Assembly (NCBI RefSeq): GCF_035918015.1 | Contig: NZ_CP109132.1 | Span: 2,790,001 to 2,854,000 of the forward strand | DNA length: 64,000 nucleotides | From: Streptomyces sp. NBC_01754 | Lineage (GTDB): Bacteria > Actinomycetota > Actinomycetes > Streptomycetales > Streptomycetaceae | Reading direction: 5' to 3' | Shown: in pieces, positions 3,822-25,292 of the stretch | How positions within the stretch are numbered: the first letter of the stretch is position 1 | Layout of the letters: each line of letters opens with the position of its first letter | The notes under the pieces: generated by a model | Told to the model about the DNA's origin: nothing | Seen by the model: the letters and a program-made list of their open reading frames with translations, nothing else | The model's database searches: none | Position numbers and translations under genes: made by a program

Positions 3822-5482
3822 GGCTGGTCCCCCTCGGTCATCGGCACCCGCACGCCCTTGTCCGCGGCGACGGTCTCCGCGAGGTCGTATCCGGCGTCGA
3901 CGTGCCGGACGACGCCCATGCCGGGGTCGTTGGTGAGCACCCGGCGGATCTTCTCACCGGCCAGTGGCGTGCCGTCGGCGACCGTGACCTGCCCCGCGTG
4001 GATGGAACGCCCCATGCCGACCCCGCCGCCGTGGTGCAGGGACACCCAGGACGCCCCCGACGCCACGTTGACCATGGCGTTCAGCAGTGGCCAGTCCGCG
4101 ATGGCGTCGGAGCCGTCGAGCATCGCCTCGGTCTCGCGGTACGGAGAGGCGACCGAGCCGCAGTCCAGGTGGTCACGTCCGATGGCCAGGGGGGCGGCCA
4201 GTTCCCCGCTCGCCACCATGTCGTTGAAGCGCTCGCCCGCCCGGTCGCGTTCCCCGTAGCCGAGCCAGCAGATACGCGCCGGCAGCCCCTGGAAGTGGAC
4301 CCGTTCCCCGGCCATCTTGATCCAGCGGTGCAGGGACTCGTTCTCCGGGAAGAGGTCCAGGATCGCCCGGTCCGTCTTGTGGATGTCCGAGGCCTCACCC
4401 GAGAGCGCCGCCCAGCGGAACGGCCCCTTCCCCTCACAGAAGAGCGGCCGGATGTACGCCGGCACGAAGCCGGGGAAGTCGAACGCCCGCGCGTACCCGG
4501 CGAGCTGGGCCTCGCCCCGGATCGAGTTGCCGTAGTCGAAGACCTCGGCCCCCGCGTCCATGAAGCCCACCATCGCCTCGACGTGCGCGGCCATCGACTC
4601 ACGGGCCCGCCGGGTGAAGTCGGTCGGCTTCTCGGCCGCGTACGCCGCCATGTCGTCGAGGTCGACCCCCACCGGCAGATAGGCCAGCGGGTCGTGGGCG
4701 CTGGTCTGGTCGGTGACGATGTCGACCGGCGCGCCCTCCGCGAGCATCCGGGGCAGCAGCTCCGCCGCGTTGCCCAGCAGTCCGATGGAGAGCGGCCGCC
4801 GCGCGTCACGCGCCTCGACCGCCAGCTGGAGCGCGTGTTCGAGCGAGTCGGCCCGGACGTCCAGGAAGCGGTGCTCGATGCGGCGCTCGATGGCGCGCGG
4901 GTCGCAGTCGACGCACAGGGCCACGCCGTCGTTCATGGTCACGGCCAGCGGCTGCGCCCCGCCCATGCCGCCCAGCCCCGCCGTCAGCGTGATGGTCCCC
5001 GCCAGTGTCCCGCCGAACCGCTTGGCGGCGACGGCGGCGAAGGTCTCGTAGGTGCCCTGGAGGATGCCCTGGGTTCCGATGTAGATCCAGGAACCGGCGG
5101 TCATCTGCCCGTACATGGTCAGCCCGAGCGCCTCCAGCCGGCGGAACTCCTCCCAGTTGGCCCAGTCGCCGACCAGGTTGGAGTTGGCGATCAGGACACG
5201 CGGCGCCCACTCGTGGGTCTGCATCACGCCGACCGGCCGCCCCGACTGGACGAGCATCGTCTCGTCCTGCTTGAGCGTCCGCAGGGTACGGACCATGGCG
5301 TCGAAGGAGCGCCAGTCGCGGGCCGCCTTGCCCGTGCCGCCGTACACGACCAGCTTGTCGGGGTGCTCGGCGACCTCGGGGTCGAGGTTGTTCTGGAGCA
5401 TGCGGAGGGCGGCCTCCTGCTGCCAGCCCAGGGCGCTCAGTTCCGTACCGCGCGGTGCCCGTACGGGGCGGGGTCCTGACAT
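3818..5482 (-). CDS. hutU: Urocanate hydratase (urocanase)
   Basis: Converts urocanate to 4-imidazolone-5-propionate using tightly bound NAD+. It has 554 aa, the normal family length. Recognisable segments are [11 protein letters not shown] near the N-terminus, the glycine-rich NAD-binding stretch [28 protein letters not shown] and the C-terminal [15 protein letters not shown]. An in-frame ATG exists at 5518, but the ATG at 5482 is preceded by a perfect AGGAGG six bases upstream, so I chose 5482. It is the first gene of the hut operon, and the next gene starts inside its stop codon. Histidine ammonia-lyase (hutH) is not in the window. Confidence 0.96.
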
Positions 5483-5511
5483 GGGATGCCTCCTCGCGAC
5501 TGTGACTGGAC

Positions 5512-5547
5512 TATTCACATCCTGGTGCTCTGAATACTCCTAGTCAA
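5512..5547 (-). promoter_or_regulatory. hutU promoter with overlapping inverted repeat
   Basis: On the minus strand TTGACT (5547-5542) and CAGGAT (5524-5519) are separated by 17 bases, a good match to the housekeeping sigma consensus of Streptomyces. An inverted repeat TATTCA (5536-5531) / TGAATA (5517-5512) with a 13-base spacer places one arm between -35 and -10 and the other just downstream of -10. This is where a repressor would act. The regulator is unknown. Confidence 0.6.
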
Positions 5548-5722
5548 CAAGGTGGCCGTCCCCTCGGGGTCGGCCACCGGAGGTCCGTCACCCCTCCGCC
5601 CTCTACCACGAGCGCCCGCATGTACCTGTGGAAAATGCCAGAAGTACCTCCCAGGCACGAGCACGATGCGTAGCCTCTCCAACACAGCCAGCCGTGTACG
5701 CCACGTCGGGAGGGGAACAGCG

Positions 5723-6130
5723 GTGCCCGGAATCGACGAGTGCCTGCTCGAAGTCATGAGGCTGCCCGGTGCCCGGGGCGCCGCGGTCGTCGACTGGACG
5801 AGCGGCCTCGCCCTCGGCACCATCGGCGAATCCCCCAACGGCGACCACGAGGCGACGGCCGCCGAGACCGCCGAGGTGGCGCGTATGGCCGCCGAACAGC
5901 CGGTGTTCACCCAGGCGCAGGCCGCCTCCCCCGACATGTCCACGGTCCCCGCATCCGCGGTCGAGGACGTCATCGTCACCACGGCTCCCGGCTACCACAT
6001 CCTGCGTTTCGTGGAGACGGCGTTCGACAGCAGCGTCTTCATCCACCTCTGGCTGGACCGCTCGGAGGGAAACCTCGCCCTCGCCCGGATCAAGCTCGGC
6101 GAGATGGCGCAACGGCTGGTCCTCGCATGA
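5723..6130 (+). CDS. Roadblock/LC7 domain protein (first of three)
   Basis: A 135-aa protein that is essentially one roadblock/LC7 (MglB/CvnB-like) domain. GAAVVDWTSGLALGTIGE near residue 17 is the characteristic first strand-turn-strand, and FIHLWLDRSEGNLALARIKL is the C-terminal strand/helix. In other systems such proteins dimerise and act on Ras-like GTPases. The GTG at 5723 is chosen because GGGAGGGG lies about 10 bases upstream; an upstream in-frame ATG would add about 57 atypical residues. The stop overlaps the next start as ATGA. No GTPase, DUF742 or histidine kinase of the conservon type is visible, so the partner is unknown. Confidence 0.82.
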   Translation: MPGIDECLLEVMRLPGARGAAVVDWTSGLALGTIGESPNGDHEATAAETAEVARMAAEQPVFTQAQAASPDMSTVPASAVEDVIVTTAPGYHILRFVETAFDSSVFIHLWLDRSEGNLALARIKLGEMAQRLVLA

Positions 6131-6927
6131 GACCCACCGCGGCCGTCCGGCCCCCGGCGTCCGCCCCGGCCGTGCTCTCCCCGATGCTCCAGCGGCTCGC
6201 GGCGGAACGCGCCACCGGAGCCCTGATACGCGACCACGGCACCCTCTACCTCGCCGACGGGCAGGTCGTGCACGCCGAGAGCCCCGCCACCCCGGGCATC
6301 GACGTCCTGCTCACCACCGGCGGCGCGTTACGCAGCGAGGGCTGGTGGGACGCGATCGCCCAGGCGGGCGCCGGACAACGCGTCGGCCGCTACCTCGTGG
6401 ACAGCGGACGGGTGCCCGGCGGAGCGCTGGAACTCTGCCATCTGGGCGCGCTGTACGACGCGGCCTTCTTCGCCCTCGCCCCGACCGGCACCCCGGCCCG
6501 CTTCCGGTACGGGGTGTCCCACTGGATCGGCTCCGTCCGCCCCGTCCCCGTGGCCGCCGTACAGCGCGAGACGCTCCGGCGCCGGGAACTGCTGGACCAC
6601 GTCTGGCCCGACGCCCGCACCGACAGCGCCCCGCTCACCCTTACGGCCCGGCCCCTCGACACGCCGGTGCCCGCGCGCCGGCGCCGCGTCCTGGACCTGG
6701 TGGACGGCGTGCGTACGGCCACGGACATCGCCCAGGAGCTGGGCCGCTCGGCCTTCCACACCCTGGTCGACCTGCGGCGGCTCGCTGCGGCCGGGCTCGT
6801 CGAAACGGTTCACCCCGCCTCCTCCGGGCCGGACCACGCGGCCGGCCGGATCGCCTTCCCCGAGGTCACGGCCGATCCCGACGTCGCCCTGCTGCGCCGG
6901 CTCCGAGACGCGTTGGAGGCCCTGTGA
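6127..6927 (+). CDS. DUF4388 (PatA N-terminal-like) protein with C-terminal winged helix; contains a TTA codon
   Basis: A 266-aa protein. Residues about 15-80 look like a DUF4388 domain (GTLYLADGQVVHAESPATPG). Residues about 200-245 (DLVDGVRTATDIAQELGRS, then LVDLRRLAAAGLVE) resemble a small winged helix. The start ATG overlaps the upstream roadblock stop. Codon 68 (6328-6330) is TTA, the rare leucine codon read only by the bldA tRNA in Streptomyces, so full-length translation should depend on bldA. The protein lies between roadblock genes and is probably their partner; DNA binding is only inferred. Its biochemical role is unknown. Confidence 0.7.
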   Translation: MRPTAAVRPPASAPAVLSPMLQRLAAERATGALIRDHGTLYLADGQVVHAESPATPGIDVLLTTGGALRSEGWWDAIAQAGAGQRVGRYLVDSGRVPGGALELCHLGALYDAAFFALAPTGTPARFRYGVSHWIGSVRPVPVAAVQRETLRRRELLDHVWPDARTDSAPLTLTARPLDTPVPARRRRVLDLVDGVRTATDIAQELGRSAFHTLVDLRRLAAAGLVETVHPASSGPDHAAGRIAFPEVTADPDVALLRRLRDALEAL

Positions 6928-6965
6928 TACGCGCGCTCAGACAGCGTGCCGGGAGGAGACAGCTG

Positions 6966-7430
6966 ATGGTGCCAGAGGCCGAAGCGCAGGACGTCCTCGA
7001 CGAGCTCCGGCGGTTACGGGCCCGGGTACCGCTCCTGACCGGTGCGCTGGCCGCCGGCACCGACGGACTGGTCGTCGCCCAGGACACCCCGGGCATCGAG
7101 GCCGAGGGCGTCGCCGCCCTCACCGCGGCCGCCCTCGGGGTGGCGGTCCGCATGACGGACGCCACCGGGCGCGGCGGCTTCCGCGAACTGCTGGTCCGCG
7201 GCGGCAGCGGCTACATCGCCACCTACGCGGCGGGCTCCTCCGCCGTCCTGACCCTGCTCGCCGAGGACCGCATCAACGTCGGCCGACTCCATCTGGAGGG
7301 CCGCCGCTCCGGCTCCCGGATCGGCGCGGTCGTCGACGCCGTCCTGGAGCGCGCCGAACGCCCCGCTCCCCCGCAGGGCCCCGCCCGGACCGGGGCCCTG
7401 CCCCGGCGCCCCGCACCGGACACCCGCTGA
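6966..7430 (+). CDS. Roadblock/LC7 domain protein (second); contains a TTA codon
   Basis: A 154-aa roadblock/LC7 protein. VPLLTGALAAGTDGLVVAQD (about residues 21-40) is the first beta-hairpin of the fold, followed by AALTAAALGVAVRM and a C-terminal RIGAVVDAVLERAE helix, then a Pro/Arg-rich tail. The ATG at 6966 has GGAGGA 8 bases upstream. An alternative GTG at 6924 overlaps the previous stop but lacks that spacing. Codon 17 (7014-7016) is TTA, so translation should require bldA tRNA very early in the protein. It is the third gene of the four-gene roadblock operon. Confidence 0.8.
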   Translation: MVPEAEAQDVLDELRRLRARVPLLTGALAAGTDGLVVAQDTPGIEAEGVAALTAAALGVAVRMTDATGRGGFRELLVRGGSGYIATYAAGSSAVLTLLAEDRINVGRLHLEGRRSGSRIGAVVDAVLERAERPAPPQGPARTGALPRRPAPDTR

Positions 7431-7519
7431 TGACGCCCTCCGGCGCACGTCGCCGGACCGGCACCCCAGCCAGAAACGGACCGGCCACCCGGCCGGCCAG
7501 GGAAAGGAAACGAGTACTC

Positions 7520-7894
7520 ATGGCCAACACCGAAACGGCACTGAAGGACGCGATGACGTCGATCGAGGGCGCCACCGGTGTCGCCCTCGTCGACTACACC
7601 AGCGGCATGGCCCTGGGCACCCTCGGCGGCAGCAAGGACTTCAACCTGGAAGTCGCCGCGGCGGGCAACACCGACGTGGTCCGCGCCAAGCTGCGCACCA
7701 TGGAACACCTGGGGCTCAAGGACGAGATCGAGGACATACTGATCACCCTGGGCACCCAGTACCACCTGATCCGGCTCCTCAAGGCGCGGGGCGGCAACGG
7801 CCTGTTCCTCTACCTGGTCCTGGACTCCGGCCGGGCCAACCTCGCGATGGCCCGCCACCAGCTGAAGAAGATCGAGAGCGAGCTGGAGGTCTGA
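7520..7894 (+). CDS. Roadblock/LC7 domain protein (third)
   Basis: A 124-aa single-domain roadblock/LC7 protein. GATGVALVDYTSGMALGTLG closely parallels the first gene of the operon, and NGLFLYLVLDSGRANLAMAR is the terminal strand and helix. The start ATG at 7520 is preceded by GGGAAAGGAAA. It has no TTA codon, unlike the two genes before it, and sits 89 bp after the second roadblock gene. Three paralogues in one operon suggest hetero-dimers or a layered scaffold. No GTPase lies downstream; the next gene is on the other strand. Confidence 0.85.
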   Translation: MANTETALKDAMTSIEGATGVALVDYTSGMALGTLGGSKDFNLEVAAAGNTDVVRAKLRTMEHLGLKDEIEDILITLGTQYHLIRLLKARGGNGLFLYLVLDSGRANLAMARHQLKKIESELEV

Positions 7895-7903
7895 GACCGG
7901 TCC

Positions 7904-8473
7904 TCACCGGCGGCGGCGCCGCGCCCCACCCGGCGCGGCGTCCCCCGCCATCGGCCCGGTCGCCCGGTAGGCCTCCACCTGTCGGCCGGCGGGCCGCCCC
8001 CGCTCCACCCGGTCGGTACCTACCCAGTACAGGACGTCGTCCCGGGCCTCCCGCCGCCCGATGCGCGCCGCCTTCAGCCACAGCCCGGCCCCCGCCCCGG
8101 CCAGCAGCAGCCCTCCGGCGGCAGGCAGCACCGGCGCGGCGCCCACGGCCACCACGAACGCCCCGAGCAGCCACCACCGGTGCCTCCGCCGCCACCGGCG
8201 TACGGTCACGTCCCGGTCCTGGAGGAAGTCACCGCGCCCGGCCCGCGTCGCCGATCCGGCGAGCAGTTCGTACCGCCGCATGCGGACCGACGCCACCACC
8301 GCGGCCGTCACCAGGAACAGCGCCGCCCCGGCCAGCAGCCCGATCCGGCGGCCGGTCAGCCCCGGTACGAAGGCCCCCACGGCCGCCGCCAGTACCCCCG
8401 CCCACCACATCGGGGCAGCCCCGGCCCGTACGATCACGGCCACCCTCGCCAACGACTGCGCTCCGCGCCCCAC
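7904..8473 (-). CDS. Predicted four-helix membrane protein
   Basis: A 189-aa protein I do not recognise. Two hydrophobic hairpins are visible: about residues 22-62 (MWWAGVLAAAVGAFVPG, then GLLAGAALFLVTAAVVA) and about 95-135 (WWLLGAFVVAVGAAP, then GGLLLAGAGAGLWL), joined by a basic loop. The C-terminus is arginine-rich and cytosolic-looking. The GTG at 8473 is chosen because GAAGAGGGG lies 8 bases upstream; the open frame further upstream looks non-coding. It converges with the roadblock operon, only 9 bp between stops. Function unknown. Confidence 0.6.
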   Translation of the reverse strand: MGRGAQSLARVAVIVRAGAAPMWWAGVLAAAVGAFVPGLTGRRIGLLAGAALFLVTAAVVASVRMRRYELLAGSATRAGRGDFLQDRDVTVRRWRRRHRWWLLGAFVVAVGAAPVLPAAGGLLLAGAGAGLWLKAARIGRREARDDVLYWVGTDRVERGRPAGRQVEAYRATGPMAGDAAPGGARRRRR

Positions 8474-25070: not shown

Positions 25071-25208
25071 ACGTCCGCCCCGGGGTTCGCATCGCACACG
25101 CACTGTGACCGCGACCATTCACGCCGTGTTCACGTCATGCCTCACGCGGGACGGCACCCGCCGTACCGGCCGTGCCGGTCGTCCGGCCCCCACACCTGCA
25201 CGTGTGAG

Positions 25209-25292
25209 TGCCCGGAGCCGGACTCGAACCGGCACGCCCCCGAGGAGGCAGCGAGGTTTAAGCTCGCCGTGTCTGCATTCCACCACCCGGGC
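25209..25292 (-). tRNA. bldA: tRNA-Leu, anticodon UAA (bldA)
   Basis: The minus strand folds as an 84-base class II tRNA. The 7-bp acceptor stem pairs 25292-25286 with 25216-25210. The T-arm contains GGTTCGAGTCC. A long variable arm follows the anticodon stem GCGAG/CTCGC. The loop CTTAAAC (25262-25256) has anticodon TAA at 25260-25258. CCA is not encoded. In Streptomyces the only tRNA reading UUA is bldA, which governs sporulation and secondary metabolism by allowing translation of rare TTA-containing genes. The sequence matches my memory of bldA closely. It stands alone between cutA and the mannosidase gene. Confidence 0.97.

What the first reader, a model, noticed from the sequence alone, without database searches (positions are those of the whole stretch)
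5723..7894. Orphan roadblock operon with two TTA codons, predicted bldA-dependent
Three roadblock/LC7 genes and one DUF4388/winged-helix gene form an operon with no Ras-like GTPase, DUF742 or histidine kinase, unlike conservons. The DUF4388 gene has TTA at codon 68 (6328-6330) and the next roadblock gene has TTA at codon 17 (7014-7016). By eye I found no other in-frame TTA in the intact genes of the window. In Streptomyces such codons are read only by the bldA tRNA, which is itself in this window. The flanking roadblock genes lack TTA, so bldA would set the ratio of subunits, switching the complex on during development.
Basis: partly seen in the sequence, partly recalled or inferred. Interest (0 to 1): 0.72.

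Follow-up and report, generated by a model that had tools for sequence, protein, structure and literature searches.

The report
Roadblock operon with wandering TTA codons
A four-gene operon of small scaffold proteins and a DNA-binding protein, found across Streptomyces, has gained the rare, development-linked TTA codon many times at shifting places in its first three genes and, in the copies examined, never in its last, which suggests that the operon as a whole is tied to the developmental clock.

Summary
The operon and both TTA codons are real: g1 5723-6130, g2 6127-6927 (DUF4388-like plus winged helix), g3 6966-7430, g4 7520-7894. g2 matches in 343 of 392 same-genus genomes; 47 of 47 loci read in context keep the order g1-g4. 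No GTPase was found nearby (60 loci), and 13 of 13 own PF03029 GTPases have another roadblock partner.

g3 codon 17 is TTA in 31 of 35 cassettes of the window's clade, g2 codon 68 in 2. The stronger signal is operon-wide: in 210 distinct cassettes TTA arose about 70 times at 43 positions in g1-g3, never in g4. With starts cut alike, TTA is the most enriched codon (19-fold; next ATA, 7-fold) and the excess is in frame only. But 81 of 210 operons have no TTA.

A palindrome upstream (201 of 210) is almost the only such site in 22 genomes.

Best reading: a GTPase-free, probably autoregulated, bldA-gated operon. The ratio idea is partly supported: g4 never has TTA, g1 often does elsewhere. bldA dependence is untested. 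The published TTA cluster SCO0683-0685 may be this one (unverified).

The parts
5618..5639 (+). Near-palindromic operator candidate GCATGTACC-TGT-GGAAAATGCC, starting 105 nt upstream of g1
   Evidence: 201 of 210 cassettes have a site with 4 mismatches or fewer to GCATGTTCCNNNGGAAAATGCC, 137 exact; shuffled upstream regions have at least 5. Own genome, up to 3 mismatches: this site, its reverse reading and one 3-mismatch site, against 10 hits for the reversed control pattern. Up to 2 mismatches: 22 of 25 same-genus genomes, 0 of 16 others; reversed control 1 hit in the 41.
5667..5676 (+). -10-like element TGCGTAGCCT (TAnnnT), no recognisable -35
   Evidence: Gap from operator end to this element 27 nt in 182 of 201 sites, 28 in 5, other or none in the rest (28 in the window by direct reading of the sequence printed there). 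No consensus sigma-70 promoter found.
5723..6130 (+). g1: divergent roadblock protein, 135 aa, with a low-complexity linker of variable length in relatives
   Evidence: Robl_LC7 E=1e-3, below cut-off; homologous to g4; linker holds TTA in 22 of 210 cassettes
6127..6927 (+). g2: DUF4388/PATAN-like domain plus C-terminal winged helix, 266 aa
   Evidence: DUF4388 E=8.5e-4 and HTH_20 E=5e-3, both below cut-off; some homologues carry PF14332; AF2 model of low confidence (mean pLDDT 51.7), better at about 161-230, winged-helix matches there
6328..6330 (+). TTA, codon 68 of g2
   Evidence: 2 of 35 cassettes of the clade, window included
6966..7430 (+). g3: MglB/CvnB-type roadblock, 154 aa
   Evidence: Robl_LC7 E=2.6e-15; PDB 7f8m E=2.3e-12, cvnB5 3leq E=1.4e-5
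7014..7016 (+). TTA, codon 17 of g3
   Evidence: 31 of 35 cassettes of the clade, window included
7520..7894 (+). g4: most conserved roadblock subunit, 124 aa, no TTA in any cassette examined
   Evidence: AF2 pLDDT 88.8, roadblock fold; TTA in 0 of 210 distinct cassettes
25208..25292 (-). bldA: tRNA-Leu(UAA)

Best explanation
A stand-alone regulatory operon of Streptomyces. Three roadblock proteins (g1, g3, g4) and a DUF4388/PATAN-winged-helix protein (g2) form a complex without a dedicated Ras-like GTPase. g2 (or the complex) probably binds the palindrome upstream of g1 and regulates mainly its own operon; the site lies about 55 bp upstream of the presumed start, where an activator would sit. 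One or more UUA codons in g1-g3 make translation wait for the bldA tRNA. Which gene carries the UUA seems not to matter, so it moves between genes over time; this suggests that stalling anywhere upstream lowers output of the operon. Shown here: gene content, conservation, the palindrome, no GTPase found nearby, operon-level TTA excess and turnover. Inferred: complex formation, who binds the palindrome, activation rather than repression, bldA dependence, polarity, developmental role.
For: Order g1-g4 in 47 of 47 same-genus loci read in context (46 genomes). g2 match in 343 of 392 same-genus genomes. No GTPase in 60 loci; 13 of 13 own PF03029 GTPases have a roadblock gene about 1 kb away. Parsimony on 210 cassettes: TTA gains g1 31, g2 31, g3 8, g4 0. 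With the first 40 codons cut on both sides, TTA is 19-fold over control ORFs, next ATA 6.6-fold; TTA trinucleotides by frame 0/1/2 are 102/3/45 in g1-g3 (92,342 codons) against 7/13/68 in controls (145,164 codons); uncut 167/4/45 against 18/22/80. g4 uncut 0/0/6. Linker of g1: 24 of 101 Leu codons TTA, 0 CTA, about 17 gains at 14 columns. By one and the same low-complexity rule: g1 16 TTA of 228 Leu, g2+g3 3 of 588, controls 0 of 581. In the window's clade 34 of 35 operons have at least one TTA, and 3 of the 4 that lack the g3 TTA have one in g1 or g2. Palindrome. In paralogous loci g4 is followed by an ArsR-type gene (L310, L324, L327, L329-L332), again pairing this roadblock type with a winged helix.
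Against: 81 of 210 operons have no TTA, mainly in one broad group (57 of 132 with TTA, against 33 of 34 and 39 of 44 in the other two), so the gate is not universal. Other A-ending rare codons are raised too (after the cut ATA 6.6-fold, AGA and AAA 5-fold), so part of the excess may be relaxed codon choice; CTA gains in g1-g3 number 58 against 70 for TTA. All 41 TTA copies of g3 lie in its first 25 codons and 53 of 79 of g2 in its last 25, where codon use is often odd; within the first 25 codons the excess over control ORFs is only about twofold (64 of 2312 Leu against 10 of 787), though control starts are uncertain. The g1 linker columns were chosen after seeing the TTAs. The C that follows most TTAs also follows CTA, so it is no extra support. 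The g2 model is poor outside the winged helix. Binding of g2 to the palindrome is a guess from proximity and uniqueness. 9 of 210 cassettes lack a recognisable palindrome.
Confidence: 0.55

Rival explanations
1. Permissive drift: the operon is transcribed only late, when bldA tRNA is plentiful, so UUA codons are tolerated and come and go without regulatory effect.
For: Positions turn over; 81 of 210 operons lack TTA; ATA, AAA, AGA and CTA are also raised; g4, the most conserved, has the highest GC3 (0.945) and no TTA. Published work finds most TTA codons poorly conserved (PMC10327506, passages).
Against: TTA is the most enriched codon, although mutation should give CTA more readily than TTA in a GC-rich genome (inference). 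In the g1 linker 24 of 101 Leu codons are TTA and none CTA; out-of-frame TTA stays near background. 34 of 35 cassettes of the window's clade keep at least one.
Confidence: 0.3
2. The roadblock proteins serve one or more of the 13 conservon GTPases in trans, as spare GAP or scaffold subunits; the operon is a detached conservon accessory.
For: g3 matches archaeal roadblock, CvnB5 and MglB chains in the PDB. Two g4 paralogues stand upstream of conservon genes (L330: kinase-like, roadblock and GTPase genes; L331: roadblock and GTPase genes).
Against: Each own PF03029 GTPase has a roadblock gene of its own nearby; no GTPase near the cassette in 60 loci.
Confidence: 0.2
3. One reading: bldA changes the stoichiometry between TTA-bearing g2 and g3 and the TTA-free g1 and g4.
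For: g4 has no TTA in 210 cassettes; the split is true as stated in this one genome.
Against: g1 has TTA in 41 of 175 cassettes and g2 or g3 often lack it, so no fixed split among subunits is conserved.
Confidence: 0.12

Closest known systems
Conservons (cvnABCD) of Streptomyces (PMC8510531 and PMC4316618, passages)
   Same: Contain a roadblock protein (CvnB) and a helix-turn-helix-like protein; two are linked to aerial mycelium formation
   Different: No histidine-kinase-like CvnA, DUF742 CvnC or GTPase CvnD found; three roadblock genes instead of one; own palindrome upstream
Orphan actinobacterial MglB clade (Wuichet and Sogaard-Andersen 2014, PMC4316618, passages)
   Same: That paper reports a small actinobacterial MglB clade that is exclusively orphan and outside conservons, none characterised at that time, and PATAN-domain genes near some MglA or MglB genes
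   Different: The passages read do not describe this four-gene operon, its TTA codons or its palindrome; whether g3 belongs to that clade was not tested
SCO0683-0685, an 'Unknown' cluster frequently containing TTA (Chater and Chandra 2013 Table 2, PMC4255298, passages)
   Same: Three neighbouring genes, TTA in one or another gene (2/12, 4/13, 2/13 orthologues), as in g1-g3 here; SCO0682-0684 are strongly up in differentiating mycelium (PMC3610822 Table 3, passages)
   Different: Identity with this operon is my suspicion only; I could not reach the S. coelicolor sequences to test it
adpA and other bldA targets
   Same: In-frame TTA in a regulatory gene
   Different: adpA is reported as the only gene with TTA in all streptomycetes analysed (PMC4255298, passage); here presence is kept loosely across an operon while position moves

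Membership tests
Conservon | Roadblock gene (cvnB) | tested here: met
   g3 Robl_LC7 E=2.6e-15
Conservon | Ras-like GTPase gene (cvnD) in the operon | tested here: not met
   No hit below E=1e-5 with 13 own GTPases in the window or 60 loci
Conservon | DUF742 gene (cvnC) and histidine-kinase-like gene (cvnA) | tested here: not met
   Pfam scans of the four proteins and of six neighbouring genes show neither; done in the window only
Roadblock/LC7 proteins (g1, g3, g4) | Roadblock fold or domain | tested here: met
   g3 by Pfam; g4 by model and Foldseek, e.g. MglB 6hjm, 3kye; g1 by homology to g4 and a sub-threshold Pfam match
DUF4388/PATAN (g2) | PF14332 over its cut-off | tested here: inconclusive
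   19.8 bits, cut-off 25; several homologues carry PF14332
ArsR-type winged helix (g2 C-terminus) | Winged helix of ArsR type | tested here: inconclusive
   [not shown]
bldA targets | In-frame TTA and a bldA tRNA in the genome | tested here: met
bldA targets | TTA kept in relatives | tested here: met
   At operon level 34 of 35 in the window's clade but 129 of 210 overall; of the window's two positions only g3 codon 17 is kept
bldA targets | Expression falls without bldA | not testable with these tools
   needs a mutant

The most novel reading that the evidence does not exclude
The UUA codon itself is the selected trait of this operon. It is repeatedly re-created anywhere in the first three genes, even as the odd leucine in a low-complexity linker that serves as a landing place, so that a self-regulating roadblock/PATAN-winged-helix switch without a GTPase, working from what is nearly a single palindromic site per genome, stays locked to the bldA developmental gate.
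Probability: 0.4. Interest if true: 0.75.

Novelty: new variant of a known kind. Interest (0 to 1): 0.58.

Why it matters
Whether UUA codons are a true regulatory device or only wiring of other networks is an open question (PMC3814723 speaks of an 'ongoing debate', passage). Counting fixed positions gene by gene misses a codon that moves within an operon. This operon gives many independent gains, a TTA-free internal control (g4) and an in-frame/out-of-frame control, so the question can be tested directly. It also gives a defined roadblock system without a GTPase gene and with a candidate DNA target; PMC4316618 (2014) stated that no orphan MglB had been characterised (passage).

Tried and rejected
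Position conservation of g2 codon 68: rejected (2 of 35, window included). Relaxed AT-rich codon use as sole cause: not enough, since T-ending rare codons fall (TTT, ATT 0.4-fold) and out-of-frame TTA is near background. A DNA motif containing TTA: rejected by the frame test. A 3' C context as a sign of bldA reading: dropped, because CTA shows the same bias. A partner GTPase left over in the genome: none of PF03029, and PF00025 gave only one sub-threshold fragment; other GTPase families were not tried. Naming the S. coelicolor orthologue: paper searches for SCO3074-3077 found none and for SCO0682-0686 one; the named-genome scan returned 44 loci, none titled S. coelicolor. Papers holding roadblock, DUF4388 and Streptomyces together: 0. 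Rfam: no match at 5400-8200. Terminator and sigma-70 scan of 5480-8100: nothing. Foldseek of the g2 model: no match below E=0.001. The first GTPase test used some queries in the wrong frame and was replaced.

Limits of the counts: control ORFs come from a simple GC3-based caller with uncertain starts; the frame test cut the first 40 codons of controls only, and repeats it with both cut or neither. Cassettes are those whose coordinates the searches listed: 178 loci (five repeats of genomes already in, L222, L224, L225, L241 and L242, left out first), 175 complete; with 44, 219 complete and 210 distinct. They favour relatives of the window's and L060's g2; the weaker matches among the 343 genomes, and the other-genus loci, are not in the counts. 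L078 is from outside the genus. Parsimony ran on a tree built from the same genes, and gains at tips may be overcounted. Fisher and binomial values ignore relatedness and are not used.
Full report
What is there. The four genes and the two TTA codons are at the stated places, and the bldA tRNA is at 25208-25292 (-). g3 is a clear roadblock protein; g1 matches the same domain weakly; g4 has no Pfam match but is homologous to g1 (E=4e-21), and its AlphaFold2 model (pLDDT 88.8) matches MglB, an S. avermitilis roadblock structure and LAMTOR subunits. g2 has a DUF4388-like N-terminal part and a winged helix, both below Pfam cut-offs. Its model has low confidence (mean pLDDT 51.7) except around the winged helix (about residues 161-230), where the matches are winged helices.

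A conserved cassette. g2 has a match in 343 of 392 sampled same-genus genomes (341 with a second query). In 47 of 47 same-genus loci read with context (46 genomes), g1-g2-g3-g4 stand in this order on one strand. In 26 of these 47 the urocanase gene lies upstream, as in the window; in the others it was not found there (counted by me). Median gaps are -4, 38 and 69.5 nt.

No GTPase found. With 13 own GTPases as queries there is no hit below E=1e-5 in the window or in 60 loci of mostly 16-17 kb. The own genome has 13 PF03029 GTPases, and each has a roadblock gene about 1 kb away (paired by me from coordinates). Exceptions outside those 60 loci: L323, from another genus, has a GTPase about 6.8 kb from its cassette; in L330 a g4 paralogue lies upstream of a kinase-like, a roadblock and a GTPase gene, and in L331 upstream of a roadblock and a GTPase gene (DUF742 was not tested there).

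TTA codons. In the 35 cassettes of the window's clade, window included, g3 codon 17 is TTA in 31 and g2 codon 68 in 2. Of the four without the g3 TTA, three have a TTA in g1 or g2 and one has none. In 175 complete cassettes TTA is in g1 41, g2 43, g3 41, g4 0, and in at least one gene in 101; 17 of 411 neighbouring ORFs carry it. In 210 distinct cassettes 129 have at least one: 33 of 34 griseus-type, 39 of 44 lavendulae-type, 57 of 132 others (group names are mine, from organism names). Parsimony gives 31, 31, 8 and 0 TTA gains in g1-g4 at 43 positions, against 17, 18, 23 and 5 CTA gains.

Is it the codon? TTA is the most enriched codon: 10-fold (next ATA 6-fold) with whole genes, 19-fold (next ATA 6.6-fold) with the first 40 codons cut on both sides. 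By frame 0/1/2 the cut genes g1-g3 have 102/3/45 TTA in 92,342 codons, control ORFs 7/13/68 in 145,164; uncut 167/4/45 in 117,542 against 18/22/80 in 161,604. So only the in-frame count is raised. In the Pro/Gly/Ala-rich linker of g1, 24 of 101 leucine codons are TTA and none CTA, in about 17 gains at 14 columns, with 24, 1 and 0 by frame; these columns were picked after seeing the data. By one common low-complexity rule, TTA is 16 of 228 leucines in g1, 3 of 588 in g2+g3 and 0 of 581 in control ORFs. Against this: ATA, AAA, AGA and CTA are also raised; 81 of 210 operons have no TTA; all 41 TTAs of g3 lie in its first 25 codons and 53 of 79 of g2 in its last 25, and in the first 25 codons controls are high too (10 of 787 leucines against 64 of 2312). 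The C after TTA is shared by CTA. Operons with exactly one TTA (95) exceed a Poisson expectation (75.4), but relatedness is ignored there.

A palindrome upstream. Before g1 is GCATGTTCC-NNN-GGAAAATGCC, with 4 mismatches or fewer in 201 of 210 cassettes (137 exact); shuffled sequences do not get below 5. One of its nine base pairs is mismatched in nearly all copies (complementary in 3 of 201). The gap to a -10-like GTA element is 27 nt in 182 of 201. In the own genome, at up to 3 mismatches, only this site and one 3-mismatch site match; the reversed control gives 10. Of 41 genomes searched at up to 2 mismatches, 22 of 25 same-genus and 0 of 16 others match; each of the 22 has the site 0.48-0.65 kb upstream of its g2 match (compared by me), and there is one additional site, in G003; the reversed control gives 1. 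A nearly single target beside its own winged-helix gene points to autoregulation. The spacing suggests an activator, which is inference.

A second setting for g4. The g4 family has a match in 56 of 61 sampled genomes of the family, often in several copies. Of 13 g4 genes outside a g1-g3 cassette in the loci, six have an ArsR-type winged-helix gene directly downstream (L324, L327, L329-L332), as has one more in L310; in L328 such a gene is about 1.6 kb away (counted by me). So this roadblock type is found with a DNA-binding partner in two forms.

Mechanism. I think the complex is a DNA-binding regulator that uses roadblock proteins as scaffold, controls mainly its own operon, and is held back until bldA tRNA is available. 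g4 alone is free of TTA. Either g4 is needed before bldA acts, or its strong conservation leaves no room; I cannot tell which.

What is known. Orphan actinobacterial MglB proteins, and PATAN genes near MglA or MglB, are on record (PMC4316618, passages). Clusters in which TTA occurs in one gene or another are on record (PMC4255298 Table 2, passages); its SCO0683-0685 entry may be this operon, and SCO0682-0684 rise strongly in differentiating mycelium (PMC3610822, passages), but I could not verify the identity (my estimate 0.6). A survey of 213 species reports on average 177 TTA-bearing ORFs per genome, and 18 orthogroups with TTA in at least half of the species (PMC10327506, passages); the passages I read count by orthogroup and by position, not by operon. 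Conservon definitions are from PMC8510531 (passages).

Noticed in passing
   Followed up: partly
L310, L324, L327, L329-L332: g4-type roadblock genes directly followed by an ArsR-type winged-helix gene; in L330 and L331 conservon-type genes (roadblock, GTPase; kinase-like in L330) follow further downstream.
   Followed up: partly
own genome G000:C1:7302265-7302540 (L335): Another roadblock gene (Robl_LC7 E=2.5e-23) with no PF03029 GTPase listed near it.
   Followed up: no
[not shown]
   Followed up: no
P0151 (437 aa): A protein from a 2.3-kb contig joining a g2-like part to a Robl_LC7 domain; may be a real fusion or a frameshift.
   Followed up: no
window about 7476-7519: The last 45 nt or so before g4 are conserved in the clade (ribosome-binding stretch and, by eye, a GC-rich inverted repeat); no conserved promoter block shows further upstream.
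   Followed up: no
g1-g3 of 210 cassettes: A-ending codons TTA and CTA are both followed mostly by C (156 of 167; 85% of 67).
   Followed up: partly
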